DNA of 30,806 nt from a virus (IMGVR_UViG_3300021379_002472:1-30806), one strand, 5' to 3'. Shown: positions 3,785 through 19,900, counted from the stretch's first letter. Notes: generated by a model not told the origin, from the sequence alone. Numbers and translations are program-made.

Positions 3785-6700
3785 TCAAATCAGACATGCA
3801 CCACCAGCACAACTAATTTCCTCTATTCCTATAGTATTATCCTCTGTTTCCAATAGTTGTGTATAATCAACCTTAGTAAAACTATTATACAAATCTGTGT
3901 AAATTTTCCAATTGTACACATCTTTCATACAGTAGCTAAGTCTTTTAGTATCATTATCAAAATATTTTTTAGCAAATCTTCTCATTTTTAGCGCAAATAA
4001 TTTCTTATCATCAGGATCTTGATCTGTATCTTGATCTAGTGTAATATAGTCACAAGCTTTCCATAGATTATTATCAAAAGCATTTAGTCCCAGTTCAATT
4101 AATCCCGAACACCATAAAGAAGCGTCACCGTATTCTTTGGCTATTTCTTTACTTGTGTAGACCGTGGTAAACGGGGCCTGGGGATAATCTTTGTCCCCGC
4201 TTTGCGGAATAAGGCTGACACCAGCAAAATACTTACGGTTATGATAAATGTATTTAGTTACAGATTCCCATTCATCAGGTTGTACCGTCACTGTATTGCT
4301 TACATTATGGCTAAGAAAATCTTGAGTACATAATGATCTGTTTTTGCCAGATTGTACCCAGTTTCTTTGGGTTTCTTTGACCACACTTAGCATTTCCACT
4401 GCCGGTAATTGGTTTTTTAATTTTGAACCGTCCGGTACCTCGATTGGAAATTTGATAACCTCGTCTGTATTATTAGCAGACCATGATGACTTTTCACAAG
4501 CTTGAGGATTATAACTTTTAAAGTATTGGTAAGGAGGTTCTAATACATTAGCCTGTACATGTCTAATATACCTTTTCGCATGATGCGGATGGATACCGGA
4601 GCTAGTACCAAGCATAGAGCTACTTGTACCCTCTGGTTTCAAACAGGTGACTCGTGCTGCTTGATTAATTCCTATCTTTTTGGATAGCTCTTTATTTGTT
4701 TCAACAGCAATTTTTGCTCCTGCCTTTAAAACCTTTTCTGTTAGTACTAGATCATGCTTTTCCATAATACCTGTTAATGAAACACCAAGCAGTGCTTCTC
4801 TGTCAAAGATAGACTTGCTAACTTCACCTAAATAATCTAGGTCGGTAAATCCTGCTTGTAGGGTTCCAATAATAGCAGCTGCTTTGCATCTCTCATAAAA
4901 ATCATCTTCATCTGTTACAGAAGAACAGTTGATAGTAGAAAGATTACAGCCTTGCCACCCTGACTTGCCAGTTTTTTCATCAACAGGCCACATGCCGACT
5001 TCAACGCAATTATGTACATATACGCTATCATTATCAAAAGCATGAATCTCTTCTACTGTACAGTCATAAACATCAACCACTTGACCAATATTTTTATTTA
5101 TAAGCTTGTCAATGAAGTGTGTTCTGTTTGGCATTCTTTTATAGTTATTAACTATGGATAGAATTTTTTCACTTTTGTCTCTATTTTTGATCGGTATGCA
5201 TTTAGCAAATCTGACAACATTATCGCTACTTATTACTAATTCATGAGCGCTTTGACAGAAATAACTCTTGGTTCCTCCTTTACCATCCGGCATCACTCGA
5301 TATCCTTCGCATCTACGATTTTGATATATTTTAGAATATATGCCTAATGCGTTAAGTGCTATTTGTAAATTTTGCAAGTTATTCAATTGCGAAGAAGAAA
5401 TACGCAATGAGGAACCTTTTATGTTATTGACTAAAACTGTTCCGTCAGCATCAAAATACCCAGCAATTAATCCAGATATATGATTCCATGATCCACAAAC
5501 AGATTTTTTGTTTAATTGTTTTTGATTGCCAACAAAACAGTCTTTTTCTGTTGCAAACTTCATCAATTGTGTCGATTCGATAGAGCTGTAAACAGCAGTT
5601 GAAGATTGACTTTCTTTATGGTGATGATTGATAAAACCCACATCAGAAAGCATGTCGTATGCTTCTTGTCTGTATTCTTCTTTAGACTCTCCCCACCATC
5701 TTAATTGTGCTGCAGATTTGGATTTGGTGCCGTCGCCCATGAACATGCCGAGCAAATAGCCCTTTTTCCAGTCTTCAGAATTGCAATCGAAAGTGTTTTC
5801 ATTTTCTACAAGGAAATCTCTATGATTATTGATTACAATATTGTCCGCAAGCTTTAAGTCTCCTGCTTCTTTCCATCCTTGGGTAGTCATTATTTTATGG
5901 TTGTGGGTAACTTTTAATTTTCTTCCAGATTTAAATTCAAGCTCTAAAACTTGTTTATTCCCAGTTTTCCAAAAACCTTTGATACTTGGATAGGAAACTC
6001 CATCAACAACAGCATTAAAAGGGGTACCTATAAGATCTTCAACCATTTGTAGTCCATTATCTGTTACTACGGTTGAATCTTTAATGACACATGGATTAAA
6101 AGTCATTTCTGTAGAATCGCTCCAGATAAATCCTGGCTCACCAAATTCTTTAACAGACTCCATGAGATTCTTAAAATCTTCATAAGATGTATCGTCTTTT
6201 AATAATAATGCAGAGTTGTTGCTTCTTGCCCTTTGGGGATTTTCCATATACCAGTTACCAGTTTTGGCTTTGGCCATCTCATCGTCATCAGCACTAAACA
6301 ATGCTAATGACGCACTTCTACGCACCCCACCAGATAATACAGCATCGCTACTGTGCATAATAATATCATAAGCATCAATAGGTTTGAGCTTTTTTTGACC
6401 ATTGGCAATACACCTGTCTAAGAGTTCTCTAATTTTTTCCAACCCGTTTTTCAGAGGTTCTGGGCCGGGTGCTTTCCCAACTCCAGAGGCCAACTTTTTA
6501 CCCTTTTCTCTAATATTGGAGTAGTCAAAAACAATATACTTATCTTTGTATTCTGCAAAGCGTTGCTCGCTAGGTTTATTAAAGTAAGAACTGAGCAATA
6601 TGCCAAGCGCATCAGCCCAACCCTCTATACTATCATCTATTATGTGTTTTACACCTTTTCTTTTGTCTTTTTTTTCGGTAGATAGGTTCGGCAGCTTAGC

Positions 6701-7066
6701 TACGTGATGTTTTTGAATACTAAAACCTGTACCGCTTCCGCATAATAAAAGCCAGAAACATTCTTGAAAAAATCTTAGACGATCACAGTAAGAACTGGTG
6801 CAATTGTATATCTTTGCGTGTCTCTTTAAAATGGGATCCCCTCCAAATTGCAGAGCCCTTTGGCTGCCTAAAACTTTCTTTTTAAACATAATATCATAAG
6901 CCCAATTGATATCGTCGCTAATATCTTGCTTTTGATAGTATTCTAGCATCATATCTCTAACCCTGTCTACGGCTTCTTTCCAGGTTTCTCTGCGATTTTC
7001 AGCTTCTATCCATCGGGCATATTTGCTGACGAAAGTATAATTTTGTAGTTCATTTAAAGCAGACAT
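3785..7066 (-). CDS. nrdJ: Adenosylcobalamin-dependent (class II, monomeric type) ribonucleotide reductase with an in-frame intein
   Basis: The precursor is 1093 residues; removing the intein (326-686) leaves 732, close to the single-chain class II ribonucleoside-triphosphate reductase of Lactobacillus. The enzyme makes deoxynucleotides using a cobalamin-generated thiyl radical. Visible landmarks are YNCTSS with the redox Cys 89, the joined exteins giving FNP-CVEVGMW with the thiyl-radical Cys 687, CNLSTIN at 707, CLKPEGTSS (808-816), the active-site loop typical of reductases, and the C-terminal CAGGAC pair (1086 and 1091) that re-reduces the active site. No small subunit or activase gene is present, as expected for class II. 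AAGGAG five bases before the ATG is a strong ribosome site. The 157-base gap upstream, the longest in the window, suggests its own promoter. Confidence 0.95.
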   Translation of the reverse strand: MSALNELQNYTFVSKYARWIEAENRRETWKEAVDRVRDMMLEYYQKQDISDDINWAYDIMFKKKVLGSQRALQFGGDPILKRHAKIYNCTSSYCDRLRFFQECFWLLLCGSGTGFSIQKHHVAKLPNLSTEKKDKRKGVKHIIDDSIEGWADALGILLSSYFNKPSEQRFAEYKDKYIVFDYSNIREKGKKLASGVGKAPGPEPLKNGLEKIRELLDRCIANGQKKLKPIDAYDIIMHSSDAVLSGGVRRSASLALFSADDDEMAKAKTGNWYMENPQRARSNNSALLLKDDTSYEDFKNLMESVKEFGEPGFIWSDSTEMTFNPCVIKDSTVVTDNGLQMVEDLIGTPFNAVVDGVSYPSIKGFWKTGNKQVLELEFKSGRKLKVTHNHKIMTTQGWKEAGDLKLADNIVINNHRDFLVENENTFDCNSEDWKKGYLLGMFMGDGTKSKSAAQLRWWGESKEEYRQEAYDMLSDVGFINHHHKESQSSTAVYSSIESTQLMKFATEKDCFVGNQKQLNKKSVCGSWNHISGLIAGYFDADGTVLVNNIKGSSLRISSSQLNNLQNLQIALNALGIYSKIYQNRRCEGYRVMPDGKGGTKSYFCQSAHELVISSDNVVRFAKCIPIKNRDKSEKILSIVNNYKRMPNRTHFIDKLINKNIGQVVDVYDCTVEEIHAFDNDSVYVHNCVEVGMWPVDEKTGKSGWQGCNLSTINCSSVTDEDDFYERCKAAAIIGTLQAGFTDLDYLGEVSKSIFDREALLGVSLTGIMEKHDLVLTEKVLKAGAKIAVETNKELSKKIGINQAARVTCLKPEGTSSSMLGTSSGIHPHHAKRYIRHVQANVLEPPYQYFKSYNPQACEKSSWSANNTDEVIKFPIEVPDGSKLKNQLPAVEMLSVVKETQRNWVQSGKNRSLCTQDFLSHNVSNTVTVQPDEWESVTKYIYHNRKYFAGVSLIPQSGDKDYPQAPFTTVYTSKEIAKEYGDASLWCSGLIELGLNAFDNNLWKACDYITLDQDTDQDPDDKKLFALKMRRFAKKYFDNDTKRLSYCMKDVYNWKIYTDLYNSFTKVDYTQLLETEDNTIGIEEISCAGGACLI
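5009..6091 (-). other. Intein with LAGLIDADG homing endonuclease inside nrdJ (361 aa)
   Basis: The insert begins at Cys 326 and ends at Asn 686 of the precursor, in frame. Splicing blocks are readable: block A Cys 326, block B VTHNHK with Thr 387 and His 390, block F VYDCTVEEIHAF (666-677 region), and block G VYVHN with penultimate His 685 and terminal Asn 686, followed by Cys +1. Two LAGLIDADG motifs, LLGMFMGDG (438-446) and LIAGYFDADG (533-542), keep acidic residues Asp 445 and Asp 541, so the homing nuclease looks intact. All splicing residues are canonical. The insertion point is directly before the thiyl-radical cysteine, so the +1 Cys of splicing is also the catalytic Cys of the reductase. 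Confidence 0.93.
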
Positions 7067-7223: not shown

Positions 7224-7658
7224 TTACGTTGCTATTTCTTTAATCCATGAAAGATTTGGTGTACATTTAATTATTTTTATACCTGTTTGCTTTACAAATA
7301 AATCAAAACGATTTTTTGATTTTTCATCAAACAGTTTTGTTCCGTGACTATCAGCCATATAGACCTCGGTAATACCTTCTTGCCATAATGCCATGATGCA
7401 ATCATTACAAGATTGACCAGTTATGTATGCTCTGCCGTTATCTGGTCGTATGACACAGTTAGATAATGCATTTCTTTCTGCGTGAATCATCCAATGATAT
7501 TTTTCTGGACGAGAGGTGGGTAGTGTCGAATCATCCATGCCTTTTGGAAAGCCATTATATCCAACACCCAATATGCGATGTTGTGTATGTATATCGTGGC
7601 TACGTTGAGAAATAGCTTTAGCCAACCCTAAAAAATAATCTGTCCAGTCCGGTCTCAT
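7224..7658 (-). CDS. Deoxycytidylate (dCMP) deaminase family protein, 144 aa
   Basis: The zinc site of the cytidine/deoxycytidylate deaminase fold is visible: HAERNA with His 59 and Glu 61 (zinc ligand and proton shuttle), and SCNDC with Cys 84 and Cys 87. The flanking GVGYNGFPKG and WMIHAE are typical of dCMP deaminases, which convert dCMP to dUMP for thymidylate synthesis. The start MRPDWTDYF is the normal family N-terminus. Unusually, the segment between RSHDIHTQ and HRILGVGYNG is about ten residues shorter than in relatives I know: the first beta-strand (usually VGAVIV plus a turn) is missing. The usual Pro before the Cys pair is Ser. It may be a divergent active enzyme or an altered one. 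It directly precedes nrdJ, matching a nucleotide-supply role. Confidence 0.85.
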   Translation of the reverse strand: MRPDWTDYFLGLAKAISQRSHDIHTQHRILGVGYNGFPKGMDDSTLPTSRPEKYHWMIHAERNALSNCVIRPDNGRAYITGQSCNDCIMALWQEGITEVYMADSHGTKLFDEKSKNRFDLFVKQTGIKIIKCTPNLSWIKEIAT

Positions 7659-7664
7659 ATTCTC

Positions 7665-7692
7665 ATTATATCAGATTTTTGGGTTTAGTCAA
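7665..7692 (-). promoter_or_regulatory. Candidate strong sigma70-type promoter before the deaminase-like gene
   Basis: The minus strand reads TTGACT (7692-7687), 16 bases, then TATAAT (7670-7665): five of six and six of six consensus matches with acceptable spacing. It spans the sulfotransferase stop codon and the 26-base gap. The expected start point, 6-8 bases after TATAAT, falls at or next to the ATG at 7658, so transcripts from it would have almost no leader. It would mark the boundary between the glycan island and the nucleotide-metabolism genes. Confidence 0.45.
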
Positions 7693-8512
7693 GCCATCCT
7701 GTAGATATTTTTAATAGTTCTTCCGTATGCTCTATATATGGTCGAAAATAGGAAGATAATTCATCTATATGTTCATATGTAATTTCCTGCCTAGAATCAA
7801 AATACGTTTTCCAAAAATCACTTCTATTATCTTTATAATAACTAATATTTGATGATATATCCTCTATATTTAGAAATTTAAACATTTGCTTACAGTATTG
7901 TTGATTCATATTTTTATAGTCTTCGTATATAATGAACATCATATTTTGTGAATCGATCTTATTTTGCATATTTATTATATGCTCTGGATATAAACTCCAA
8001 TATATAAGATGATGTCTACGTTTTTCTTGTAATATTTTGTCAATACAATTTGGAACACCTTGAAAAAATTGAGATTGAAACAACCATCCATCTCTCCACT
8101 CTGTCGATATTGATGATAAAAATTTATCTTGCAATTGCTGATTATGTTGTAATTCGTATTGAGTTCTAAAGTGTATATATTGAGATATCATTCTATCAAT
8201 AGGATTGCGTAAAATCGTTATAAATTTAGTGTTACTTCTACAGCATTTTAGTATTCTGTCTAATGCTAGATTGTGACTGAAATACGTAGACGAACCCTCA
8301 TATTTTATTTTTGGATTTTGTGTGTCTGAACATTGGAAAAAATCATTGTATTCATCTATCGTCATTTCTTCATAAAATCTTGCAAAAAAATTAGGTTCTT
8401 TGATTCTGGATGCACAAAGCTGTGGATGTTGTTGTAGTATTCTATACAAAGCCGTTGAGCCTGTTTTAGGTGGGGAGTATAGGAACATATTGGTATCTAC
8501 CATATTTGTCAT
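7685..8512 (-). CDS. PAPS-dependent sulfotransferase, 275 aa
   Basis: The N-terminus carries the 5'-phosphosulfate loop YSPPKTGST (residues 12-20, with Lys 16). The 3'-phosphate motif LRNPIDRMISQY follows at 101-112, with Arg 102 and Ser 110. Both are hallmarks of sulfotransferases that move sulfate from PAPS to a hydroxyl or amine, here presumably on a glycan. I prefer the ATG at 8512, which overlaps the previous stop as ATGA and has AAAGG six bases upstream; the longer frame to 8548 lies inside the preceding gene. The size fits the family. It is the last gene of the glycan island, directly after a GT8-type glycosyltransferase, so a saccharide acceptor is likely. PAPS would have to come from the host, since no PAPS-synthesis gene is in the window. 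Confidence 0.88.
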   Translation of the reverse strand: MTNMVDTNMFLYSPPKTGSTALYRILQQHPQLCASRIKEPNFFARFYEEMTIDEYNDFFQCSDTQNPKIKYEGSSTYFSHNLALDRILKCCRSNTKFITILRNPIDRMISQYIHFRTQYELQHNQQLQDKFLSSISTEWRDGWLFQSQFFQGVPNCIDKILQEKRRHHLIYWSLYPEHIINMQNKIDSQNMMFIIYEDYKNMNQQYCKQMFKFLNIEDISSNISYYKDNRSDFWKTYFDSRQEITYEHIDELSSYFRPYIEHTEELLKISTGWLD

Positions 8513-9921
8513 AGCATACCTTTCAATGTATTGTAATAACCGTACCATATTTTGGTGGCTAGTTCTTGGTTGTTATTTGCATAGTGCCATGGTTTTATCC
8601 TACTCGAAAAATGTAAAATGATAGGACTACTATCACCATCAAGTTCTGCACGATGTAGCAAGTAGTTGTATTTGATAGGTAATTTGTCCCAGTATTTATC
8701 AAAACCTATATTTAGAGCGCATTGATCATGGAAAAATAATCTATCATAATCTACCAAAGCTCTTAGGGTTCTATCGATACAGGATTGGAATGCTGAATTA
8801 TTCAGATTTACCAATAGAACTCCGCTATTAAAATAAAAATCCAACATATTAGTCTGCTTACTCTGTAACAAAAGATCCTCATGGCTCAATTCTTCGCAGG
8901 CATAAAGTGTCTTTTCTTGGTGTTTTTCAAACAGTACCAATAAAGAGGACATAACAAGTGTGTCGCAATCGAGATACAGCGTCTGGTTTTGGTTTATGTG
9001 TTTATGGATGTGGTTTAAGGCAAAAATTCTGTAGTATGCGGATTTGTCTAATTTATTTATTATTGTGCCAGTATTTCCATAATCTGATTTTAAATACAGG
9101 TCTACGTTAACTGGTATAATTGTAAAAGTCTTTATGCCATAATGATGAAAGAGCTTATTAATGGATATCTTATGTTTGGTATCAACGTCACTATCAACAA
9201 AAATATAAAAATGAAATGCAGAAATAATATGTAAATTATTTACGATAAAAGATAGTATAGATACCATCATAGCCGAAGCATAATCATTATTACAACAATA
9301 AATAATATTGTACTTATCTTGTGTTTTTTCTATGTTTATAAATTTGTATCTTCTAGCGTCAGAAACATGTTTGAGAATTTTATTATGATCTATTTTATTC
9401 ACAAGATTTGCTAAAATAATTTCATGAATTTGATATTGTATTCGACTCTTATTGCCTTCTAGATTAGAGTAATATTGGTTAAAAGACTCCAATAGCTTTA
9501 TTGGTATATATTCTCTTTGTATGTCTGTTAATAAGTTTTTATGGAAATTATCGTCTATAACTCTGACCAATCTATCGTCATAGTTTAATTCTGTATATTG
9601 ATTGTATGTTTGGTAGTATTTATCTATTTGATATCTTTGTGCGTACAATTCTAAAAGTCCATAATAACAATATAAGATCTCATCCCTGGTTATATTGGAC
9701 TGTAAGGCAGACAATAGTAGATTCTCTATCTTTAATGTGTCAATATAATCGAGATCCTGTAACATTTTTGCATACTTCAGTTTAACCCATGCGTCGGGAT
9801 TAGGGTTATTAGATATATATTCATCAAAAATTTTCACATATTTTGATAAATCGTGAATCACCAGCTTGTTTGCATCTATCAACGACACAATACTGAATAG
9901 TTCTTGCTCTATATTATCCAT
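8509..9921 (-). CDS. Family 8-type glycosyltransferase with helical N-terminal extension, 470 aa
   Basis: The GT8-like catalytic domain spans about 204-450. Landmarks are NIIYCCNNDYASAM at the start, LYLDCDTLV with the metal-binding DxD at 318-320, FNSGVLLVNL (364-373), HDQCALNIGFDKYWDKLP (398-415), and LHFSSRIKPWHY near 436-447, the usual HFxGxxKPW-type motif. These retaining enzymes typically use UDP-sugars. The first 200 residues are helical, leucine- and tyrosine-rich, and could be a TPR-like or oligomerisation region. The ATG at 9921 overlaps the preceding gene by eight bases, and the 3' end overlaps the sulfotransferase as ATGA, tying the two together. The sugar it transfers is unknown. 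Confidence 0.88.
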   Translation of the reverse strand: MDNIEQELFSIVSLIDANKLVIHDLSKYVKIFDEYISNNPNPDAWVKLKYAKMLQDLDYIDTLKIENLLLSALQSNITRDEILYCYYGLLELYAQRYQIDKYYQTYNQYTELNYDDRLVRVIDDNFHKNLLTDIQREYIPIKLLESFNQYYSNLEGNKSRIQYQIHEIILANLVNKIDHNKILKHVSDARRYKFINIEKTQDKYNIIYCCNNDYASAMMVSILSFIVNNLHIISAFHFYIFVDSDVDTKHKISINKLFHHYGIKTFTIIPVNVDLYLKSDYGNTGTIINKLDKSAYYRIFALNHIHKHINQNQTLYLDCDTLVMSSLLVLFEKHQEKTLYACEELSHEDLLLQSKQTNMLDFYFNSGVLLVNLNNSAFQSCIDRTLRALVDYDRLFFHDQCALNIGFDKYWDKLPIKYNYLLHRAELDGDSSPIILHFSSRIKPWHYANNNQELATKIWYGYYNTLKGML

Positions 9922-12031
9922 TGAAAATTTCTATATCTATATTATGGTATTTCTTAATAAAGTTGATTCTATTAATTTCTTGAAATCTTTTAGTACCCCT
10001 GGTGATATCGGTACCGCTAGTAGAGCCTTCTGCGTGAATAGCAATACATCTTGGTTCGTATAACGTCTTATATCCTTGAATATGAGCCCTATATTGCCAT
10101 TCACTGTCTTCATAATACATAGATTCTAATGTTTCATCTAGAGGTCCGATTGCATTTAGAACATCTCTTCTTAAATACAATAAACATCCAGAACAATAAC
10201 CTGTGTAATGAGGAATATTAAATACTGGATTATTGGGATTTTGGTTTCTTCCTTTATTTTTTCCGTATCCAGAATTGTATAATTCTGCACCGGCTTCTGC
10301 TAATAACCCATTAGGATAAACTGTTTTACCTCCCGATGCACATATGTAGTCTGCGCTATAGGCAGAGGAATAGAGGTAGTTTAGCCAGTAATCAGAAACA
10401 ATTTCTACATCATCGTTTATTAATAATATATCAGAATTTTTATAATTAGGATTATTAATTACTTGGTTATTGGGATAGATGAAAAACGTATTAGCGTCAT
10501 ATTTAATGTACTCTATATTTGATGTATTTTTAAAGTGTTTAGCGACCAGGTTTTTTGTTTCGTTATTGGTGCTATTGTCTGAAATAATAATACTATAGTT
10601 TCGATATTTAGTTTTACCTAATAATAAATCCAAACATTTTTTTAATCTGCCTGGTTGATTATATGTTACTATGCTGATAGCTATATGTTTATCTCGTAAA
10701 GTATGCATCATAATATTTTTTGCTGCATTTATAGACACCAACAGTTTTAGATGTTTTTGTCCATTTTTACCTAATTGTTTTTGTTCTTTTTTTGTTCTAG
10801 AATAAAACCATTGTAATTGTTCTACAAAATCTTTGGTATTATTAGCTATCAGTCCGCTATGTTGGTGCGTTAAGTTTATTCCTTCGTTACCTATATCCGA
10901 CGTAAGTATCGGCATACCACACATAGCTGCATCACAAATCTTGCCCTTGATTCCTGCCCCCCAATTGAGAGGGGCTAATAATAGTGTATTTTGAGTATAT
11001 AAATCGGATAAATTATCTATCTTTCCTGTAATAATAATATTAGAAGAATTACATTTTTTTCTGATATCGTCATTGATATTAGGTCCAACTATATATAGTT
11101 TAGGTTTATATTTCTTGTATTCTTTTGTTTTGGAAAATTGATTATAGATATTGATTGATTCTATAGCACCATATATATTAGGATAGTGAGCATAATTTCC
11201 AATAAAAAAAATATTATTACCTAATTCTATATTTTGTTCCTGATGTATATTGCTAACTATTTTAATGTTGTTATTATATCCAATTTCCTGCTGTATAGCC
11301 TTTTTATCATTCTCTGTTACGGTCCAAATTACATCAGCTTTACTATAGCAAAATTTTTCTAACTGTTTTTTTGCGTCTAGTGTTACTTGATCAGATTTAA
11401 TAAATCCAGCTTTTTTACCTCGTTGTTCTCTTAACCAGTGAACATCTACAGTATCTATAATAGTTTTAATGTCTGGGAAAATATCTTTTACAATATCAAA
11501 ATACTGTCGAGCTATATCATACCAAGCAAAAATTACATTATCAAATACTAATCCGTTTTTTTTCATATGTTTTAGATGATAATCATGATATCTAGATCGT
11601 TTTACGTCTGGCAAATGTACGGGTATATCAATATTTTCTAAAACTTTTATGTGTTCCGGACTATTTGCCCCATTACAAAAAAAATATACGTTGTATGCTA
11701 AGTCTTTTTTTAGTATAGTAAGCATTTGCAATAATCTATTACCTCCACTGCTCATATCGTAATCTGGCGCTGTCGGAGCAAAGAACAATAAATTATTGTT
11801 GTCTTTCCATATTTCTGCCGATTCTATGCCATCATTTATTATCTTTCCGTGTGTATTTGGAATAGTATACATTCTTTTTTCTCTAATCCCAAACATTAAA
11901 TAATGTGCTATGGCTCTGTCTTCTGTATCTATTCCATTTGCTTCTAGATCGGAATTGAGAGATAGATATTGTTTATAGTCAAAATCGCTTGGTATGATAT
12001 TTTTATATTTTGCTATCGAGCTTGGGTTCAT
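9914..12031 (-). CDS. Two-domain glycosyltransferase: GT-B (family 4-like) plus GT-A (family 2), 705 aa
   Basis: Three modules are visible. Residues 15-55 (DYKQYLSLNSDL, then AHYLMFGIREKRMY) form a small helical module that recurs at the ends of phage and bacterial glycosyltransferases. Residues 80-445 are a GT-B glycosyltransferase: FFAPTAPDYDMSSGGNRL near the start, FIGNYAHYPN (276-285) beginning the second Rossmann half, and LLAPLNWGAGIKGKICDAAMCGMPI (351-375 region), a donor-site loop. Residues 449-700 are a GT2 domain with ISIVTYNQPGRLKKCLDLL, LLINDDVEI (acidic cluster near 540-543), GYCSGCLLYLRRDVL and YYEDSEWQYRA. The single chain could add two sugars in succession. It starts six bases after the methyltransferase gene. 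Donors and acceptor are unknown. Confidence 0.88.
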   Translation of the reverse strand: MNPSSIAKYKNIIPSDFDYKQYLSLNSDLEANGIDTEDRAIAHYLMFGIREKRMYTIPNTHGKIINDGIESAEIWKDNNNLLFFAPTAPDYDMSSGGNRLLQMLTILKKDLAYNVYFFCNGANSPEHIKVLENIDIPVHLPDVKRSRYHDYHLKHMKKNGLVFDNVIFAWYDIARQYFDIVKDIFPDIKTIIDTVDVHWLREQRGKKAGFIKSDQVTLDAKKQLEKFCYSKADVIWTVTENDKKAIQQEIGYNNNIKIVSNIHQEQNIELGNNIFFIGNYAHYPNIYGAIESINIYNQFSKTKEYKKYKPKLYIVGPNINDDIRKKCNSSNIIITGKIDNLSDLYTQNTLLLAPLNWGAGIKGKICDAAMCGMPILTSDIGNEGINLTHQHSGLIANNTKDFVEQLQWFYSRTKKEQKQLGKNGQKHLKLLVSINAAKNIMMHTLRDKHIAISIVTYNQPGRLKKCLDLLLGKTKYRNYSIIISDNSTNNETKNLVAKHFKNTSNIEYIKYDANTFFIYPNNQVINNPNYKNSDILLINDDVEIVSDYWLNYLYSSAYSADYICASGGKTVYPNGLLAEAGAELYNSGYGKNKGRNQNPNNPVFNIPHYTGYCSGCLLYLRRDVLNAIGPLDETLESMYYEDSEWQYRAHIQGYKTLYEPRCIAIHAEGSTSGTDITRGTKRFQEINRINFIKKYHNIDIEIFNG

Positions 12032-12037
12032 GATGTT

Positions 12038-12688
12038 TTATTTTTGCGTGTTAAATTTTTGGCTTACGTATTGATATGTTTTATGAGCCTTATGTCCTAT
12101 TAAGAACTTGTTACAATCATACAATGAAAAACCGCCCATATGGCGATTATCTTCTAAAAATTTATCAGTACCAGACTTAACTTCTGGCCAATGAGTATTA
12201 TTATAATCATCCACAACAATAATACCTTCATGATTTAAAATATTCATGGATAGATTTAGATCATTAATAACTGTGCTATAATCGTGTCCGCCATCTACAC
12301 TAATAATTCTGTATTGATAATGATTAATTCGCAAACTATCTGGAGATAAGTTTGTTGAGTTATCCGTGATAATTATTGTATTATCTAAATTTTCGAAAAC
12401 TTTTATCACATTTTTGATAAACATATCTTTGCTTAACTCATGATTAAAATATGTATCAAATAAATCTATGGCGACTATACATTCATCATTTTTAAGAAGT
12501 GTTCTCAGAGGAATAAAAGACAGGCCACGAAAAACACCTATTTCTAATATATTACCTCGAATGTTATTATGTGTTTGAAATGTATCTATACGCTCTAGAT
12601 ACTTATTAAATTTGATACTATACCAAATTTCGTCATCGTTTTCCGAGTCTATAATTTGTTTGTATTTTTCTAATAAATTTGTCGCCAT
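12038..12688 (-). CDS. Class I SAM-dependent methyltransferase (TylF/family 24-like), 216 aa
   Basis: The Rossmann nucleotide site ILEIGVFRG (47-55) is followed by an acidic strand end, IVAIDLFD (71-78), then ISVDGGHDYSTVINDL (129-144) and GIIVVDDY (155-162). The VDGxHxYxxVxxDL pattern is characteristic of the methyltransferase-24 group, which includes sugar O-methyltransferases such as TylF-like enzymes and many proteins from polysaccharide clusters. Between two glycosyltransferase/sulfotransferase genes, methylation of a sugar hydroxyl is the natural reading. AAGG eight bases before the ATG serves as ribosome site. The acceptor cannot be read from sequence. Confidence 0.85.
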   Translation of the reverse strand: MATNLLEKYKQIIDSENDDEIWYSIKFNKYLERIDTFQTHNNIRGNILEIGVFRGLSFIPLRTLLKNDECIVAIDLFDTYFNHELSKDMFIKNVIKVFENLDNTIIITDNSTNLSPDSLRINHYQYRIISVDGGHDYSTVINDLNLSMNILNHEGIIVVDDYNNTHWPEVKSGTDKFLEDNRHMGGFSLYDCNKFLIGHKAHKTYQYVSQKFNTQK

Positions 12689-12697
12689 AATTTTACC

Positions 12698-13375
12698 TTA
12701 TATAGAGTAATATTCTTCTAATACCTCATAGTCTTGCTGTACATAACCGTATATAGCATTTTTAATATCCTCACTCAGCAATTCATAATTTGCATTAGAG
12801 CTATTCAGATAATATTCATTTTTAACACCCAAGTAAAATGGATTAGTATCATTGAATGCTAACATGTCTTCAGGATTTTCTTGTCGTATTATCATATCGT
12901 ATGATTTTAGCTGTTTTTTTGCAGCATCTATCATTTTAGTTCCCGGCGCCAAGTAATAAGTTAGGTAATTTGTTGTAAGATTTTGTATCATTGGTCCAAA
13001 TTTGTCAATTTGCTCAAAGGCTTGAGTATCGTCTATGTCGGTAAGATCTATGTTGTGGAAAAACTTAATATGACTTATAAATCTATTGATAGGATCTCGT
13101 ATTAGTAAAATCTTATATACTGTGTCATCACTTAAGTCTCTAAGTCTTTCAAACGTTTGAGCATAACTATGATCAAAAAATAATACCGTATTTTGATGAA
13201 TAACATCTATTAAATACGGCCTGTAACTTATGCACACATCTGCGTGTGTAAATCCGGATATGTATTTGTGCTTATCATGAAAATATTGATTATCTATCAA
13301 TGCTTCGTTTAATGCATATCTAAAGCTAGAACCACCACATCTTGGGATATGTGTTACTATTAAGTATTGTTGCAT
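12698..13375 (-). CDS. Second sulfotransferase, Sulfotransfer_2-type, 225 aa
   Basis: Residues 8-17, THIPRCGGSS, match the HIPKTGGTS 5'-phosphosulfate loop of the carbohydrate sulfotransferase group that includes 2-O-sulfotransferases, with Arg 12 in place of Lys. LLIRDPINRFISHIKFFH at 90-107 is the 3'-phosphate motif, with Arg 93 and Ser 101. It is clearly a different subfamily from the sulfotransferase at 7685-8512, whose loop is SPPKTGST. The ATG at 13375 overlaps the epimerase stop by 16 bases. Presumably it sulfates a sugar made by the neighbouring genes. The Lys-to-Arg change in the PAPS loop is conservative but worth noting, because that lysine is catalytic in characterised relatives. 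Confidence 0.82.
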   Translation of the reverse strand: MQQYLIVTHIPRCGGSSFRYALNEALIDNQYFHDKHKYISGFTHADVCISYRPYLIDVIHQNTVLFFDHSYAQTFERLRDLSDDTVYKILLIRDPINRFISHIKFFHNIDLTDIDDTQAFEQIDKFGPMIQNLTTNYLTYYLAPGTKMIDAAKKQLKSYDMIIRQENPEDMLAFNDTNPFYLGVKNEYYLNSSNANYELLSEDIKNAIYGYVQQDYEVLEEYYSI

Positions 13376-13854
13376 ATGTTTTTATCCTTGTCTGATATGT
13401 GTATAATTTCTGATGGCCATTTTATATCATAATCTTTATAACAATATGTTTCGTCTAATTTTGGATTATATTCTTGATTTTGTTGATATATTAAGATACT
13501 GTCTTCTAATGCTAAAAAAGCATGTCCGCAAAATGGAGGAATGTATAGACTATTTAGAACAACTTCGCTTAAGCATATTCCAAAATGCTGATTGTGTGTT
13601 TTACTATGAGGTCTCAAATCAACACAAACATCATATACTGTACCCTTTACGCAGGTCACATACTTGGCATATGGGGTTCTGTGTATGCCTCTCAGGACCC
13701 CTTTCTTTGAAAAGCTGTAGTTTGACTGAAGGGGTTTAAACAAATGCTCTGTGGAAGAATTTTTAAAAATTTCACTAAATATACCTCTATGATCTTCGAA
13801 CATATCCGGCTCTATCCAGAAGCAATTATCGATATGTGTGTTGTGCTTTTTCAT
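13360..13854 (-). CDS. rmlC: dTDP-4-dehydrorhamnose 3,5-epimerase (RmlC-like) cupin, 164 aa
   Basis: The family signature is complete: FEDHRGIFSEIF (19-30), QSNYSFSKKGVLRGIH (43-58) ending in the catalytic His 58, VKGTVYDVCVDLR (69-81), YIPPFCGHAFLALED (104-118), and a C-terminal YCYKDYDIKWP corresponding to the usual W-P end. RmlC epimerises C3 and C5 of dTDP-4-keto-6-deoxyglucose on the way to dTDP-L-rhamnose and related deoxysugars. Its partner dehydratase lies upstream, separated only by a glycosyltransferase gene. At 164 residues it is slightly shorter than the usual 180. The ATG overlaps the previous stop as ATGA. A 3- or 5-only epimerase variant is possible. Confidence 0.88.
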   Translation of the reverse strand: MKKHNTHIDNCFWIEPDMFEDHRGIFSEIFKNSSTEHLFKPLQSNYSFSKKGVLRGIHRTPYAKYVTCVKGTVYDVCVDLRPHSKTHNQHFGICLSEVVLNSLYIPPFCGHAFLALEDSILIYQQNQEYNPKLDETYCYKDYDIKWPSEIIHISDKDKNICNNT

Positions 13855-14606
13855 GGCGATAATATGTGATCGCTATTAATATCTATATAAGAGTGTACAT
13901 GATCTGTTGAACCAAAGTGTTTGCTGTAGCTATATTCGTGATTTTGTCCTATTCTAGTACATCTGGAGATCATTGGGCATAACGAAGTTAAACCATTTTC
14001 CCTCATATAATAGCCAAACCTCGAATCTCCGTTAGACTTTTCTCCACGAATATGTCCATATTTGTCCCATATGTGTTTTGATATAGCAAAATCTGTGGAA
14101 GATATCCAATCTATATGTTGTTTTTTATTAGCATACTCCGCTATATTATTTAAAGAAATATCTGGGTGTTCGAATATGGGACTTATGCAGTATGCAAACT
14201 CCTCTGGGGCATTTTCTATAGTTGTTACTAAATATGTTAGGGCATCTTTGTTAACTAGTATGTCATCTTCTAAAAATAAAATCCATTCTGTTTTTGTAAA
14301 CATGTGATCTATTAAAAATTTACATGATGCTGCTGGGCCAAGATTATGGGGTGTGTGGATAATTTCTATGTTCTTGTATATGTTTGTTGTGTTTTGTTTA
14401 TAAAACTCAATATATTCTTTTACTTGGCGGTTCATATCTAAATATTGAGAAGGATAATTAATAAGATCCATATGGCTAGATATTGAATCGGCACATATGG
14501 TCAAGGTATAATTGCTGATCTGGTTACATCTTTCTAGTTTATCTAAACACAGTCGCAATGTGTCTAACTTAGAAAATGTTAGCACCCCTATGCTAAGATC
14601 AATCAT
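13851..14606 (-). CDS. Family 2-like (GT-A) glycosyltransferase, 251 aa
   Basis: The fold reads as GT-A: LSIGVLTFSKLDTLRLCLDKL (4-24) is the nucleotide-binding start, HTPHNLGPAASCKFLI (84-99) the middle of the donor site, and WILFLEDDILV (108-118) carries the metal-binding acidic triplet at 113-115. The C-terminus (HSYIDINSDHILSP) is unusual and has no membrane segment, so the enzyme is soluble. It sits between the dehydratase and epimerase genes, overlapping both by a few bases, which suggests it uses the deoxysugar they make. The exact donor is not readable from sequence. Confidence 0.82.
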   Translation of the reverse strand: MIDLSIGVLTFSKLDTLRLCLDKLERCNQISNYTLTICADSISSHMDLINYPSQYLDMNRQVKEYIEFYKQNTTNIYKNIEIIHTPHNLGPAASCKFLIDHMFTKTEWILFLEDDILVNKDALTYLVTTIENAPEEFAYCISPIFEHPDISLNNIAEYANKKQHIDWISSTDFAISKHIWDKYGHIRGEKSNGDSRFGYYMRENGLTSLCPMISRCTRIGQNHEYSYSKHFGSTDHVHSYIDINSDHILSP

Positions 14607-15585
14607 CTAACACCCATCCTATCGTTTTTCTTAACGAATCATCAAAACTTATAGGTTGCTGCCAACCCATATCTCGTAATTTGCTACCATCTAAACTGTA
14701 CCTTCTGTCATGTCCTGGCCTGCTCTTCTCAAGATCAACATATTCTAACCTTGGTTCTTTATTCATTAATTCACCAAGCCTTTTTACCATATCGTCATTG
14801 TATAATTCTACGTCTCCGACCACATTATAGTGTTCACCAGCTGTGCCATGATGGAATAAAAATAGTGTAGCATTGGCTGCATTTCTAGCGTGTAGCCAGT
14901 GTCGTTGTCCTACATATTCTACATTGCCATAACTATCTAATTTAGCGTGTATTTTAACTGGTTGATTTTTATTGATAAGATCTATTGCTAGGGCAACAAA
15001 TTTTTCTTTATGTTGTCTTTCTCCAAATAGATTCATGGTATATGTATGAATAATGGGTAATTTATAAGTGTTGTGATACGATATTCCCAATGCCCCCTGA
15101 CCAGCTTTACTAGCACTATATGGGTTACTGGGGCGCCATCTGTCGTCTTCTTTAAAGTCGTAGCCTTCTGGAGCTGGTCCAAAAACTTCGTCCGTTAGAT
15201 AGTTAATAAACAGCGCTTTGGGCGAATATTGCCTATACCACTCTAAAAGATTAAGAGTTCCAACAACATTATCTTCAACAAATTGTCTAGGATGTATTAT
15301 GCTTCTGGTAACATGGCTATTGGCCGCTATGTGCGCCACATAATCTACTTCTCCAATAGCTTCAATGCTGTGAGGGGGAAATTCGAATTTCAGATCGTGA
15401 TAAATTATTTTTATTCTATCAGCATACTGTTTAACGTGCAGGCTATCTACTATTCTCTGCATATCTCCAACATATGTAAGCCTGCATAATGCTATAATAT
15501 TCCAGTCTGTATTGACGAGTACCTCCTCTACAAAATGAGAACCTAAAAATCCAGCTGCGCCGGTTATTAAAATAGTTTTAGGCAT
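14599..15585 (-). CDS. rmlB: NDP-sugar 4,6-dehydratase (dTDP-glucose 4,6-dehydratase/RmlB-like), 328 aa
   Basis: An extended short-chain dehydrogenase with the NAD site GAAGFLGSH (9-17) and the dehydratase triad YLTDEVFGPAPEG, with Thr 131, Asp 132 and Glu 133. The active-site Tyr 156 and Lys 160 lie in NPYSASKAG, and RPGHDRRYSLDGSKL near the end is the RmlB C-terminal signature. The enzyme turns dTDP-glucose, or another NDP-hexose, into the 4-keto-6-deoxy sugar. The C-terminal MGWQQPISFDDSLRKTIGW is typical. With the RmlC-like gene it supplies an activated deoxysugar; rmlA and rmlD are not in the window and may come from elsewhere in the phage or from the host. It overlaps fcl by eight bases. 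Confidence 0.9.
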   Translation of the reverse strand: MPKTILITGAAGFLGSHFVEEVLVNTDWNIIALCRLTYVGDMQRIVDSLHVKQYADRIKIIYHDLKFEFPPHSIEAIGEVDYVAHIAANSHVTRSIIHPRQFVEDNVVGTLNLLEWYRQYSPKALFINYLTDEVFGPAPEGYDFKEDDRWRPSNPYSASKAGQGALGISYHNTYKLPIIHTYTMNLFGERQHKEKFVALAIDLINKNQPVKIHAKLDSYGNVEYVGQRHWLHARNAANATLFLFHHGTAGEHYNVVGDVELYNDDMVKRLGELMNKEPRLEYVDLEKSRPGHDRRYSLDGSKLRDMGWQQPISFDDSLRKTIGWVLDD

Positions 15586-16495
15586 AGTATTTTCTGTACC
15601 ATTCTATGGTTCGTGTTAAGCCTTGGTCAAGAGAAACTTTTGGTTTCCATAATAGTAGATTTTCAGATCTCGATATGTCTAAACATCTTCTGGGCTGACC
15701 ATCCGGATAATTCTGATTGAAATAAATTTCCCCGCCATATCCCATTATATTTTTTATTTTGATCGCCAAATCTTTGATAGTAATTTCTTGACCGGTACCA
15801 ATATTAATAATGTCTGGCTGGTTACAATTGATAACAGCTGATTTTATAGCGTCTGCGCAATCTTCCACGTATAAAAATTCCCTGCTAGCATTACCTGTCC
15901 CCCAGATTTCCACCTTGTTTACATTGTGTTTAATTGCATTTTGAAACTTTAGAATCAATGCAGGTATTACATGGCTGGAATCTGGATTGAAATTATCATT
16001 AGGGCCATACATATTGACCGGAATTAAATTTATACCATTAAAACCATATTGATCATGATAAGATTGAATCATTTGTATTAATGTTTTTTTAGCTATACCA
16101 TAAGGAGCATTTGTTTCTTCTGGATAGCCATCCCATATATTTTCCTCCTTAAAAGGAATGGGGCAATACTTAGGGTAAGAACAAACAGTACCGATCATAA
16201 CAAATTTATCAACATTATATTTTTTTGCCAACCTAATAACATTACATCCCATGACTAAATTATTCTCTATAAATAGTCCAGGGTTCTCTTTGTTTGCCCC
16301 AATACCACCAACTGTAGCCGCAAGATGTATGACTATATTGGGTTTGATGTCCATGTACATTCTTTCTGTGTCTTCATAAGACATCAAGTTATACATAGAG
16401 CTGTTGACAGCATGCACCATGCCCAAAGAATGCATGTTAACACATACTGCTTTACCTAAAAATCCTGTTCCTCCAGTAACCAGAATGTCCTGCAT
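15578..16495 (-). CDS. fcl: GDP-L-fucose synthase, 305 aa
   Basis: An NADP-dependent 3,5-epimerase/4-reductase that makes GDP-L-fucose from GDP-4-keto-6-deoxymannose. The Rossmann site is VTGGTGFLG (6-14). The active site reads GTVCSYPK with Cys 105, then YGIAK with Tyr 132 and Lys 136, and SHVIPALI with His 175. All sit at a constant offset of four from Cys109, Tyr136, Lys140 and His179 of the E. coli enzyme, which is strong support for function. WGTGNASREFLYVEDCADA is also diagnostic. GDP-mannose 4,6-dehydratase (gmd) is not in the window, so its substrate must come from another phage gene or the host. It is the first gene of the glycan island. Confidence 0.93.
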   Translation of the reverse strand: MQDILVTGGTGFLGKAVCVNMHSLGMVHAVNSSMYNLMSYEDTERMYMDIKPNIVIHLAATVGGIGANKENPGLFIENNLVMGCNVIRLAKKYNVDKFVMIGTVCSYPKYCPIPFKEENIWDGYPEETNAPYGIAKKTLIQMIQSYHDQYGFNGINLIPVNMYGPNDNFNPDSSHVIPALILKFQNAIKHNVNKVEIWGTGNASREFLYVEDCADAIKSAVINCNQPDIINIGTGQEITIKDLAIKIKNIMGYGGEIYFNQNYPDGQPRRCLDISRSENLLLWKPKVSLDQGLTRTIEWYRKYYA

Positions 16496-16509: not shown

Positions 16510-16764
16510 TTATCCTTTACCTTTTGTTAATTTATTGTATACAACAATACACAGAGCAGATCCTACTATGCCCATAAATACACCTGATGGCTCAAGTGCT
16601 GATTGTTGACCGAGTAAATATAAAGCAGCCCCTCCAGCATAAGATCCACAGATACCTAAAAATATTGTTTTGACAAACCCAAAATTTTCTTCTCCAGGAA
16701 CCACAGCTTTTGCTATAGATCCTACAAAAATACCATATACGCACCATACTAAAACACTGAACAT
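16510..16764 (-). CDS. GlsB/YeaQ/YmgE-type small membrane protein, 84 aa
   Basis: The protein is almost entirely hydrophobic with three predicted membrane helices (about 3-19, 29-50 and 59-77). It has the family pattern: GIFVGSIAK, a PGEE loop, FGFVKTIFLGICGSYAGG and GVFMGIVGSALCIVVY. The GlsB/YeaQ (transglycosylase-associated) family is widespread in bacteria and linked to envelope stress, but its biochemical role is unknown. I use the ATG at 16764, with AGGAG upstream at a rather long ten-base spacing, instead of the in-frame GTG at 16794 inside the preceding gene. In a phage it might act on the host membrane, for example as a holin-like or envelope factor. That is inference. Confidence 0.75.
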   Translation of the reverse strand: MFSVLVWCVYGIFVGSIAKAVVPGEENFGFVKTIFLGICGSYAGGAALYLLGQQSALEPSGVFMGIVGSALCIVVYNKLTKGKG

Positions 16765-16769
16765 AGTAA

Positions 16770-17147
16770 TTATTCTCCTATAAGATAAGAACACTCCTCC
16801 GTGCTTATTGTTTCTCCATAATCTAAAATAGCATGCATCAATGAGTTTCCGTATTTTCTATAATCTTCTCTTTTCATTTCGTTTCTAATGAGTTTTTTGA
16901 TTCTCATTTTCGTATACCAGCCACGACGCTTGCTAAGCTCTTTGACCGTCTCCGCATAAAAATTTACCTGATCATCATTACTTGAAAATGTTTTTTTATT
17001 ATTACACTCTTGAATAATTCTGATAGTTGTTAATATAATGCTAATCATGCCTATGATTAATATAATACTACCATATTCTTCTGGCAAATTAGAGGATTTG
17101 ATAATTTGTTCAGCAATTTGTTTCACTCTTTCATTATTTTGTTTCAT
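16770..17147 (-). CDS. Single-span membrane protein, 125 aa, unknown
   Basis: One clear membrane helix at about residues 27-45 (ILIIGMISIILTTIRII) follows a polar amphipathic N-terminus. The C-terminal 80 residues are basic and helical, with RRGWYTKMRIKKLIRNEMKRE. By the positive-inside rule the C-terminal domain is cytoplasmic. No family is recognised. The ATG has AGGA six bases upstream and lies eight bases after the propeller gene. The next gene is the GlsB-like membrane protein, so the two may work together at the host membrane. Confidence 0.72.
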   Translation of the reverse strand: MKQNNERVKQIAEQIIKSSNLPEEYGSIILIIGMISIILTTIRIIQECNNKKTFSSNDDQVNFYAETVKELSKRRGWYTKMRIKKLIRNEMKREDYRKYGNSLMHAILDYGETISTEECSYLIGE

Positions 17148-18229: not shown

Positions 18230-19900
18230 TTATTCAATGCTTATGCTAGCACCCATAGAGCCGGATGTGTTACTGTAATAATAAATAGTATTAGGAGTAT
18301 TAGCTATGACTGTTAATTCTGTATAGCTATTTTCTGTACCGGGAGTTCCTATATATCTTACACCGGATGAGATGGTATTATTGCTAATATTGTCAGAGCT
18401 ATAAGACAATTGAAATAAATGTTCTGTATTGCTAGTATCTGATTGGTAGAATCTGTATACCGTAGTGTCAGATTTGTCTATATTTATATCTGGCTTAGTA
18501 ACACCATCTACTGTAAAAGCTGTTCCGCTTACAGCAATGTCAAAAGACGAAAATTTTACGTTAAAGTTTTCATCTATCCTGGAATCTACATAAGGTTCTA
18601 AAATTATAGTATCAAACTTGTAGTTTTTATACAATATCGATACGTCATCCCCCGTAAAAACGTTACCGTCGTAGATTAGTTGTCCAACCATATTGAGGTT
18701 GCATGGAGACGAGGTTGGTGTCGGTGTCGGTGTAGGCGTCATTGTAGGAGTTGGTGTGGGTGTTGGAGTAATTGTAGGTGTAGGTGTTGGCGTAGGTGTT
18801 ACAGATTGAGTTGGTGTTACTGTGGGGGTAACGGTGGGAGTTGGGGTTACTGTTGGCGTAACGGTCGGAGTCACAGTCGGAGTCGGGGTGGGCGTAGATG
18901 TTGGCGTGGGAGTAGGTGTGGGTGTTGATGTTGGAGTAATGCTTGGTGTCGGTGTAGGGGTTGGGGTTATTGTGGGAGTTGGGGTTGGCGTAACCGTGGG
19001 AGTTGGAGTAGGCGTAGGTGTCTGTGTCGGGGTGGGTGTTGGGCTTACACATACTGGGGGTAATTGACCATCTCCGTTTGATTGAGCGGTTACTGCTGTA
19101 GGAGCAGAATCGTACTGAGTAGCATATGTCCAATATTTTGACGAATCAGGATCATAAAAAGCTGCCTTATACCACTCATCTATTGAAGGTATCCAAAAAG
19201 TAGCGCCAGGCTGTTTGGAATATAGTCCATTTGTTGCTCCGTTGAGATTATAAGCACCTGTTTCAGTTGTAGAAGACGTTTGACTACCGGTGCTTGGCAT
19301 TCCGTTATGTAACCAGTTGGCGAATCTTGCTGCTCTAAACCAATTAATATTGCTAACCGGCTTATTGGACATATTGGTAGATATGTTATATGTATAACTG
19401 TTACTAAATCCGGATCTGGTAATACCCACCATATTAGCAGAATAAAGGGAGTATGAATCAGTGGCTGCAACACTATTCAAAAATGCTACATATTCAGATA
19501 TTGTAACGAGATATGTTCCAATTTTATAGATATCATTAATAGAGCCATAGCCGTTTGTATCGGCCATATTACTAGCATCGCTTACTGTCTCTAAAGATAT
19601 TAGTGAGCTTACGGATGATGAACTTGCTGCTATTCTAAATCCTATCATAGTATTAGATATAGAGGGACTGAGCAGCAAATTATTATTTTTGGATAAATCA
19701 GATACATTACTAGAAAATCTACTACCCCCAATAATAATTTTACTAGATCCAGAAATAGTGTCTGTAAATTCGTACAATAAACCGCTCTGATCATAAGTAC
19801 CATAGTAGCTAGCAGCGCCGTTAGTACCTACTGTTGTTACGTTGCCGTCTATATTATTCCAGTCGGTGTTGTTATTATAGTTTGCACTATTACATGTCAT
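18230..19900 (-). CDS. Putative virion adhesin: permuted FGE/C-type-lectin-like domain, Pro/Thr linker, phage beta domain (556 aa)
   Basis: Residues 3-93 resemble the C-terminal half of an FGE (formylglycine-generating-enzyme-like) fold: [15 protein letters not shown], then IIIGGSRF and MIGFRIA. Residues 104-275 resemble its N-terminal half: [57 protein letters not shown]. The order is therefore reversed from normal, a circular permutation. No catalytic cysteine pair is present (Cys only at 3, 284 and 400), so a binding role is likely, as in the FGE-type C-type lectins used by phage receptor-binding proteins. Residues 286-399 are a Pro/Thr linker. Residues 400-556 match a beta domain I recall from aquatic-phage structural proteins ([38 protein letters not shown]). 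A host-attachment function is inferred. Confidence 0.8.
18704..19045 (-). repeat. Pro/Thr-rich tandem repeat (residues 286-399 of the lectin-like protein)
   Basis: About 114 codons of alternating Pro and Thr, broken by Val, Ile, Ser, Gln or Met every few residues, in a degenerate six-base period (ACACCN-type units). The opposite strand is correspondingly G-rich (GGTGTN). It joins the lectin-like and beta domains as an extended, probably rigid linker. Mixed third bases show it is not a recent expansion of one unit, though length variation between relatives is likely. Confidence 0.95.

What the first reader, a model, noticed from the sequence alone, without database searches (positions are those of the whole stretch)
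7685..16495. Phage-encoded set of enzymes for a methylated, sulfated deoxysugar glycan
Nine consecutive genes encode GDP-L-fucose synthase (catalytic Cys, His, Tyr and Lys in place), an RmlB-like dehydratase, an RmlC-like epimerase, four glycosyltransferase domains, a methyltransferase and two sulfotransferases of different subfamilies. Seen in sequence: the motifs and overlaps. Inference: together they could build a sulfated and methylated fucose- or rhamnose-containing oligosaccharide on virions or on the host surface. Glycosylation genes are known in large aquatic phages, but two sulfotransferases in one such operon would be uncommon. Missing here are gmd, rmlA, rmlD and PAPS synthesis, which must lie elsewhere or be taken from the host.
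Basis: partly seen in the sequence, partly recalled or inferred. Interest (0 to 1): 0.75.

Follow-up and report, generated by a model that had tools for sequence, protein, structure and literature searches.

The report
Swappable sulfated-sugar gene island in phages
A large uncultured water phage carries nine enzyme genes that look able to build, methylate and sulfate a sugar coating; they sit at a fixed place in its genome where related phages carry a different set of sugar genes or none, which suggests a swappable surface-sugar module, although no sulfated sugar has yet been seen on any phage particle.

Summary
In detail: 7685-16495 encodes nine same-strand, mostly overlapping genes with the named enzymes. 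The GDP-L-fucose synthase-like protein keeps Cys105/Tyr132/Lys136/His175. Both sulfotransferases keep the two PAPS-binding motifs, and the predicted fold of the second matches heparan-sulfate 2-O/6-O-sulfotransferases. In 59 related sites this gap is empty (28, under 150 bp) or holds 0.2-9 kb, up to about 22 kb in one more, of different sugar genes. The island ends at a conserved sigma70-like promoter for the deaminase/RNR genes and has none at its own start. Sulfotransferases recur: one relative's island has four, plus a hydroxylase-like and a methyltransferase gene; another has two. gmd is phage-encoded beside GDP-fucose synthase in some relatives; no APS kinase was found in 15 records. Near-absence of membrane enzymes points to assembly in the cytoplasm, most likely on virion proteins (inferred). 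Phage glycan islands and phage sulfotransferases were already known (pelagimyophages, cyanophage ACG-2014f). New here is a fixed, swappable, repeatedly multi-sulfotransferase island in an uncultured lineage: a new variant of a known kind, interest about 0.5.

The parts
7665..7692 (-). sigma70-like promoter TTGACT-N16-(TG)TATAAT ending 6 nt before the dCMP deaminase ATG; downstream border of the island
   Evidence: 11 of 12 consensus matches, best site in the window; a site scoring 10 or more in 52 of 87 relatives versus 3.2% of 2590 control windows
7224..7658 (-). dCMP deaminase, conserved flank gene (first gene after the island)
   Evidence: PF00383, phrog_174; used as anchor
7685..8548 (-). 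ST1, Sulfotransfer_1 family (heparan N-/3-O-sulfotransferase-like); likely true start 8512
   Evidence: PF00685 66.9 bits; NDST1 E 5.8e-10; PPKTGS, KEPxFF and RNPxxRxxSxY shared with a 38% identical relative
8509..9921 (-). GT8 family glycosyltransferase
   Evidence: PF01501 91.9 bits
9914..12031 (-). two-domain glycosyltransferase (GT4-like + GT2-like) with an N-terminal FDxxxYLxxxxDL...HYxxxGxxExR domain shared by many island GT-like proteins
   Evidence: PF13692, PF00534, PF00535; cluster 2 of 15 ORFs
12038..12688 (-). Methyltransf_24 / TylF-like O-methyltransferase
   Evidence: PF13578 46.5 bits
12698..13375 (-). ST2, Sulfotransfer_2 family (heparan 2-O/6-O-sulfotransferase fold); PSB loop has Arg12 in place of Lys
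   Evidence: PF03567 27.2 bits; model pLDDT 84.7; VIA Z 13.6 to 2-OST with PAP; five island relatives at 32-40% identity
13360..13854 (-). RmlC-like dTDP-sugar 3,5-epimerase
   Evidence: PF00908 144.9 bits, H58 and K64 kept; homologues in 12 other island loci
13851..14606 (-). GT2-like glycosyltransferase
   Evidence: PF00535 35.1 bits
14599..15585 (-). RmlB-like NDP-sugar 4,6-dehydratase
   Evidence: TIGR01181 239 bits, below its cut-off; TDE and YxxxK kept; 83-93% identical in six related islands
15578..16495 (-). GDP-L-fucose synthase-like epimerase/reductase; first gene of the island
   Evidence: NF047922 282.7 bits; C105, Y132, K136, H175 kept; 77% identical in L080, dN/dS 0.07
16510..16794 (-). 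small membrane protein (Transgly_assoc-like), conserved flank gene at the upstream border
   Evidence: PF04226 24 bits, just below cut-off; used as anchor

Best explanation
The segment is the accessory island of a large uncultured tailed-phage lineage. Shown: it occupies a fixed site between a small membrane-protein gene (16510-16794) and dCMP deaminase (7224-7658), where relatives are empty or carry other sets of sugar genes. Its own content is two nucleotide-deoxysugar enzyme sets (GDP-fucose synthase-like; RmlB- and RmlC-like), four GT domains, an O-methyltransferase-like protein and two PAPS-type sulfotransferases. Inferred: the enzymes work in the infected cytoplasm, taking upstream precursors (GDP-4-keto-6-deoxymannose, dTDP-glucose, final 4-reduction) and PAPS from the host or from genes outside this fragment. 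The GTs build a short deoxyhexose oligosaccharide directly on a protein, and the methyltransferase and sulfotransferases then cap it with methyl and sulfate groups. With no promoter of its own and no membrane export or ligation enzymes, the island reads as the distal part of the upstream operon, so its most likely acceptors are virion proteins made at the same time. The product would be a variable, negatively charged coat or adhesin glycan, changed between relatives by swapping genes at this locus.
For: Families and catalytic residues. ST2 fold with PAP- and oligosaccharide-bound heparan sulfotransferases as best matches. Fixed site: conserved flank order in relatives; 59 distinct flank-resolved sites, 28 under 150 bp and 25 of 2 kb or more. 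Island AT-richer than flanks in 24 of 25, consistent with gene acquisition. Relatives' islands also hold sugar enzymes, GTs, methyltransferases and sulfotransferases: four Sulfotransfer_2 plus PhyH plus Methyltransf_24 in L109, two in L127; L080 carries GFS 77%, RmlB 90% and RmlC 81% identical with other transferases. GFS with GMD side by side in L077 and L081, and GMD in L183. Soluble enzymes: only 19 of 411 island ORFs have any strongly hydrophobic 19-residue stretch, and none looks like a multi-pass flippase or polymerase. Promoter at the downstream border conserved; no site scoring above 9 in the 90 bp at the upstream border in 30 of 32 islands.
Against: No acceptor has been identified, and late or structural expression of the upstream operon is not shown (flanking proteins had almost no PHROG matches). 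A Pro/Thr-rich stalk protein next to the island (18230-19900) looked like a possible O-glycan acceptor, but such stalks are no more frequent beside filled (3 of 22) than empty sites (4 of 18). ST2 and most of its close relatives have Arg where classical sulfotransferases have the catalytic Lys. RmlB-, RmlC- and GFS-like proteins fall below equivalog cut-offs. No PAPS synthesis gene was found. Phages of other lineages have been proposed to use similar genes to alter host surfaces (PMC7029224).
Confidence: 0.55

Rival explanations
1. The island remodels the host's surface polysaccharide (O-antigen or capsule) during infection, by adding sulfate, methyl and deoxysugars, so that competing phages cannot adsorb or released virions do not stick to debris.
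For: Proposed for glycosyltransferase-rich variable islands of pelagimyophages (PMC7029224); GT8 and rhamnose/fucose enzymes are typical of O-antigen pathways (general knowledge); fast gene turnover fits competition among phages.
Against: Known phage seroconversion systems use membrane proteins (GtrA/Gtr, O-acetylases; general knowledge), and none is seen in the window island and almost none in 411 island ORFs. Soluble enzymes could still act on lipid-linked intermediates in the cytoplasm, so this is not excluded.
Confidence: 0.27
2. The sulfotransferases are unrelated to the glycan and sulfate something else (a small molecule, a tyrosine, or an antibiotic-like compound); neighbourhood is accidental.
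For: The sulfotransferase fold covers many acceptors; ST2's weaker structural matches include StaL/Teg12 and tyrosylprotein sulfotransferases. G072 (194.8 kb) has several Sulfotransfer_2 matches and one Sulfotransfer_1 match, all outside its dCMPd-side island.
Against: Sulfotransferases recur inside islands among GTs and sugar enzymes; nearest solved relatives of both act on glycosaminoglycan sugars.
Confidence: 0.12
3. The glycan is put on phage DNA (hypermodified bases), as in some large phages.
For: GTs that decorate DNA exist in phages (cited in PMC12619734); dCMP deaminase is adjacent.
Against: No hydroxymethyltransferase or base-modifying enzyme was recognised in the window; deoxysugar, methyl and sulfate additions are not known on phage DNA (general knowledge); the deaminase neighbour is kept when the island is empty.
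Confidence: 0.04

Closest known systems
Glycan gene cluster of Synechococcus phage ACG-2014f (Kyanoviridae, NC_047712 gp219-gp231)
   Same: nucleotide-sugar epimerases (one about 40% identical to the window GFS), glycosyltransferases, methyltransferase and a sulfotransferase in one run of genes, a few small genes before a tail fibre gene; a second locus has an RmlB-like protein 44% identical to the window's
   Different: one annotated sulfotransferase, plus an aminotransferase; different phage family (no gp23-type capsid match in the window's relatives, though that search had no positive control); different genomic site
Host recognition cluster (hypervariable island) of pelagimyophages (PMC7029224)
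   Same: fixed, non-syntenic island of a large aquatic phage lineage rich in glycosyltransferases
   Different: lies within the structural region and contains tail fibres; the paper's text holds no mention of sulfotransferase or fucose; here the site is between a small membrane-protein gene and nucleotide metabolism and is often empty
Sulfotransferase-containing glycosylation clusters of Moumouvirus australiensis and Cotonvirus (PMC10117803)
   Same: deoxysugar enzymes, GTs and a sulfotransferase clustered; thought to decorate capsid fibrils; sulfation untested
   Different: eukaryotic giant viruses; clusters include their own sulfate adenylyltransferase/APS kinase, not found here; one sulfotransferase
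Virion glycosylation of mycobacteriophages (Freeman et al. 2023, as cited in PMC12619734)
   Same: phage glycans on capsid and tail tube proteins
   Different: no sulfation or deoxysugar operon described in the text read
Sulfotransferases of other phages (OM43-phage MVGs and S-SRM01 in PMC10580990; P-SSM7, S-SCSM1 and uncultured phages in BFVD)
   Same: phage-encoded PAPS-type sulfotransferase of unclear function
   Different: PMC10580990 calls their function unclear and describes no multi-sulfotransferase island; no tblastn match to ST1 or ST2 in 50,697 phage records

Membership tests
GDP-L-fucose synthase (GER/Fcl) | catalytic Cys, Tyr-Lys and His | tested here: met
   C105, Y132, K136 and H175 align with 7ll6
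GDP-L-fucose synthase (GER/Fcl) | NCBIfam equivalog cut-off NF047922 (500 bits) | tested here: not met
   282.7 bits; relatives with adjacent GMD also fall short (420 and 431 bits), so the cut-off is strict for phage proteins; filed as GFS-like only
dTDP-glucose 4,6-dehydratase (RmlB) | TDE triad and YxxxK | tested here: met
   T131-D132-E133, Y156, K160
dTDP-glucose 4,6-dehydratase (RmlB) | TIGR01181 equivalog cut-off 365 bits | tested here: not met
   239 bits; substrate may differ; filed as RmlB-like
dTDP-4-dehydrorhamnose 3,5-epimerase (RmlC) | TIGR01221 cut-off 155.75 bits | tested here: not met
   118.4 bits; Pfam PF00908 passes; filed as RmlC-like
PAPS sulfotransferase, Sulfotransfer_1 (ST1) | curated Pfam cut-off plus 5'-PSB and 3'-PB motifs | tested here: met
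   66.9 bits (cut-off 22); PPKTGS and RNPxxRxxSxY
PAPS sulfotransferase, Sulfotransfer_2 (ST2) | curated Pfam cut-off and sulfotransferase fold | tested here: met
   27.2 bits (cut-off 22); Z 13.6 to 2-OST, 13.0 to 6-OST
PAPS sulfotransferase, Sulfotransfer_2 (ST2) | catalytic Lys in the PSB loop | tested here: inconclusive
   Arg12 in the window protein, Lys in the relative L131; activity with Arg not testable here
Hypervariable glycan island at a fixed site | conserved flanks, variable or absent contents | tested here: met
Self-sufficient sulfation cluster (moumouvirus type) | own APS kinase | tested here: not met
   no PF01583 match in the window or 14 related records, several of them fragments
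Virion glycosylation system | glycan present on virion proteins | not testable with these tools
   needs virions and mass spectrometry

The most novel reading that the evidence does not exclude
This phage lineage has a dedicated sulfoglycan-diversification locus: a swappable cassette, bounded by an early promoter, in which sulfation, methylation and hydroxylation genes are repeatedly reassorted, giving virions a variable, multiply sulfated coat that imitates sulfated polysaccharides of aquatic organisms or evades receptors, grazers or competing phages. To my knowledge it would be the first sulfated glycan shown on a phage.
Probability: 0.3. Interest if true: 0.75.

Novelty: new variant of a known kind. 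Interest (0 to 1): 0.5.

Why it matters
Phage sulfotransferases are recorded in aquatic viromes, and one paper calls their function unclear (PMC10580990). This lineage gives them a genomic setting: repeated inside a defined, swappable glycan island with empty-site relatives as natural controls, which makes a test direct (compare filled and empty relatives, or express one island). If the sugar is on virions it would show that phages build sulfated glycans, and would link phage surface chemistry with giant-virus fibrils.

Tried and rejected
ST1 and ST2 as queries found no match in phage records or IMG/VR; flank genes worked instead. AlphaFold of ST1 with two sequences gave pLDDT 48.9 and was not used. 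The Pro/Thr-rich stalk as the specific glycan acceptor was tested by co-occurrence and rejected. A T4-like origin (gp23) found no match in 21 large relatives, but nothing rang in the controls either, so it is not an exclusion. The terminase of a relative is only about 23-25% identical over long alignments to cultured phages, so the lineage has no close isolate in the collection; identity with the 'moraphages' (PMC12619734) could not be tested. A host guess from ST2's nearest cellular matches (mostly Chitinophagales/Saprospiraceae MAGs, 24-56% over short stretches) was dropped as too weak; the TTGACA/TATAAT promoter speaks against a Bacteroidota host (general knowledge). Rfam found nothing. Several island 'second sulfotransferases' (L071, L073, L077, L080) are weak or failed the Pfam cut-off and are not counted as firm. 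RmlD and CysN/CysD were not searched.

Full report
What is there. The window is a 30.8-kb IMG/VR virus fragment. On the minus strand, 16495 down to 7685 holds nine tightly packed genes: GDP-L-fucose synthase-like, RmlB-like dehydratase, GT2-like, RmlC-like epimerase, Sulfotransfer_2 (ST2), Methyltransf_24, a GT4+GT2 protein, GT8 and Sulfotransfer_1 (ST1). Catalytic residues of the three sugar-nucleotide enzymes align with solved enzymes, but all three score below NCBIfam equivalog cut-offs, so the exact sugars are not fixed by sequence. dN/dS of 0.03-0.10 against relatives, where dS could be estimated, indicates working genes.

The sulfotransferases. ST1 matches the sulfotransferase domain of NDST1 (E 5.8e-10) across the 5'-phosphosulfate loop (PPKTGS), the KEPxFF segment and the 3'-phosphate motif (RNPxxRxxSxY), and a 38% identical relative in another large phage (G072) keeps all three. 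ST2 has no PDB sequence match, but its model (pLDDT 84.7, six sequences) matches heparan sulfate 2-O- and 6-O-sulfotransferases solved with PAP, with Z 13.6 and 13.0 against about 9 for the next group. Its loop reads PRCGGSS; the Arg for Lys is a caveat.

The island. Queries with the flanking PhoH, dCMP deaminase and Transgly_assoc-like genes retrieved over a hundred contigs, up to 244 kb. Gene order recA - ... - HNH - PhoH - RNR - dCMPd is kept on one side and g16510 - g16770 - ... - cysteine peptidase on the other. Between g16510 and dCMPd lies the variable segment: of 59 distinct flank-resolved sites 28 are empty (under 150 bp), 6 hold 0.15-2 kb and 25 hold 2-9 kb. Larger ones exist, for example about 22 kb in G016 from the flank positions. 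Island DNA is AT-richer than its flanks in 24 of 25 cases.

What other islands carry. Clustering of island ORFs gives 149 groups; recurrent ones are SDR enzymes, RmlC, GT-like proteins with a shared N-terminal domain, GT4/GT2, proteins with an HxRxGD motif as in fucosyltransferases (my reading of the sequence), methyltransferases and sulfotransferases. L080's island has GFS (77%), RmlB (90%) and RmlC (81%) like the window but different transferases. L109 (contig G042, 160 kb) has two SDR genes, four Sulfotransfer_2 genes, a PhyH-type dioxygenase and Methyltransf_24. L127 has two Sulfotransfer_2 genes above cut-off. Among 73 related records searched, Sulfotransfer_2 rang in 25 (17 above cut-off) and Sulfotransfer_1 in 7 (4 above); some records are pieces of the same virus. 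Sulfotransferases also occur outside the island (G007, G072). GMD sits beside GFS in L077 and L081, and L183 has GMD next to a GFS-sized SDR gene, so the missing gmd of the window is a gene relatives do carry. APS kinase (0 of 15) and NTP_transferase above cut-off (0 of 15) were not found; these records are mostly incomplete.

Borders. The downstream border carries a near-consensus promoter, TTGACT-N16-TATAAT with an extended TG, ending 6 nt before the dCMPd start codon, probably giving a leaderless message. A site scoring 10 or more lies in the 70 bp upstream of dCMPd in 52 of 87 relatives, filled (38 of 58) and empty (14 of 29) alike, against 3.2% of control windows. The upstream border has no comparable site in 30 of 32 islands. 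The island is therefore probably read from upstream and is separated from the nucleotide-metabolism operon. This is inference from sequence; no expression data.

Mechanism. With soluble enzymes only, no lipid-carrier transferase, flippase or ligase in the island, and almost no strongly hydrophobic stretches in 411 island ORFs, the simplest reading is stepwise transfer from nucleotide sugars onto phage proteins in the cytoplasm, then O-methylation and sulfation with SAM and PAPS. Target on the virion is the favoured inference (about 0.55), host envelope the main rival (about 0.27).

Comparison. Phage glycan islands (pelagimyophages, PMC7029224), single sulfotransferases in phages (PMC10580990) and sulfotransferase-bearing glycan clusters in giant viruses (PMC10117803) are known. 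ACG-2014f gp219-231 is the nearest described gene set. What differs is the fixed empty/filled site, repeated multi-sulfotransferase content and the uncultured lineage. I therefore file it as a new variant of a known kind.

Noticed in passing
7665-7692 and the same place in 52 relatives: Near-consensus sigma70-type promoter whose -10 box ends 6 nt before the dCMP deaminase start codon in many relatives, which implies a leaderless early transcript; it also argues that the host is not a Bacteroidota.
   Followed up: partly
7224-7658: The window's dCMP deaminase lacks nine residues (GCVITDQ..) present in all six aligned relatives, an in-frame 27-bp deletion close to the start of the catalytic domain.
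   Followed up: no
3785-7066: Class II ribonucleotide reductase carrying an intein with a LAGLIDADG domain; one relative (G013) matches over the full length while the others match only the two extein parts.
   Followed up: partly
21169-23232: A papain-like cysteine peptidase (my reading of the sequence; no Pfam peptidase match) interrupted by a second, different intein placed directly before the apparent active-site Cys; relatives match only the two extein parts.
   Followed up: no
18230-19900: FGE-sulfatase (formylglycine-generating-enzyme-like) domain followed by about 100 residues of Thr-Pro repeats and a C-terminal domain, probably a virion adhesin.
   Followed up: partly
between the cysteine peptidase and g16770, e.g. 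L078:1959-7745, L194:6606-9631: A second variable site a few genes upstream of the glycan island, from a few hundred bp to several kb, in some relatives with Thr/Pro-rich stalk-like ORFs.
   Followed up: no
G072:C1:171466-185061: One Sulfotransfer_1 gene (38% identical to ST1) and two Sulfotransfer_2 genes within about 14 kb, far from the dCMPd-side island, pointing to a second sulfoglycan locus in the same lineage.
   Followed up: no
island ORF clusters c0 and c2, e.g. L079:8147-9895: A shared N-terminal domain FDxxxYLxxxxDL...A..HYxxxGxxExR in many GT-like proteins; the main 59-ORF cluster's representative has no Pfam match and looks like an uncharacterised GT-A enzyme.
   Followed up: partly
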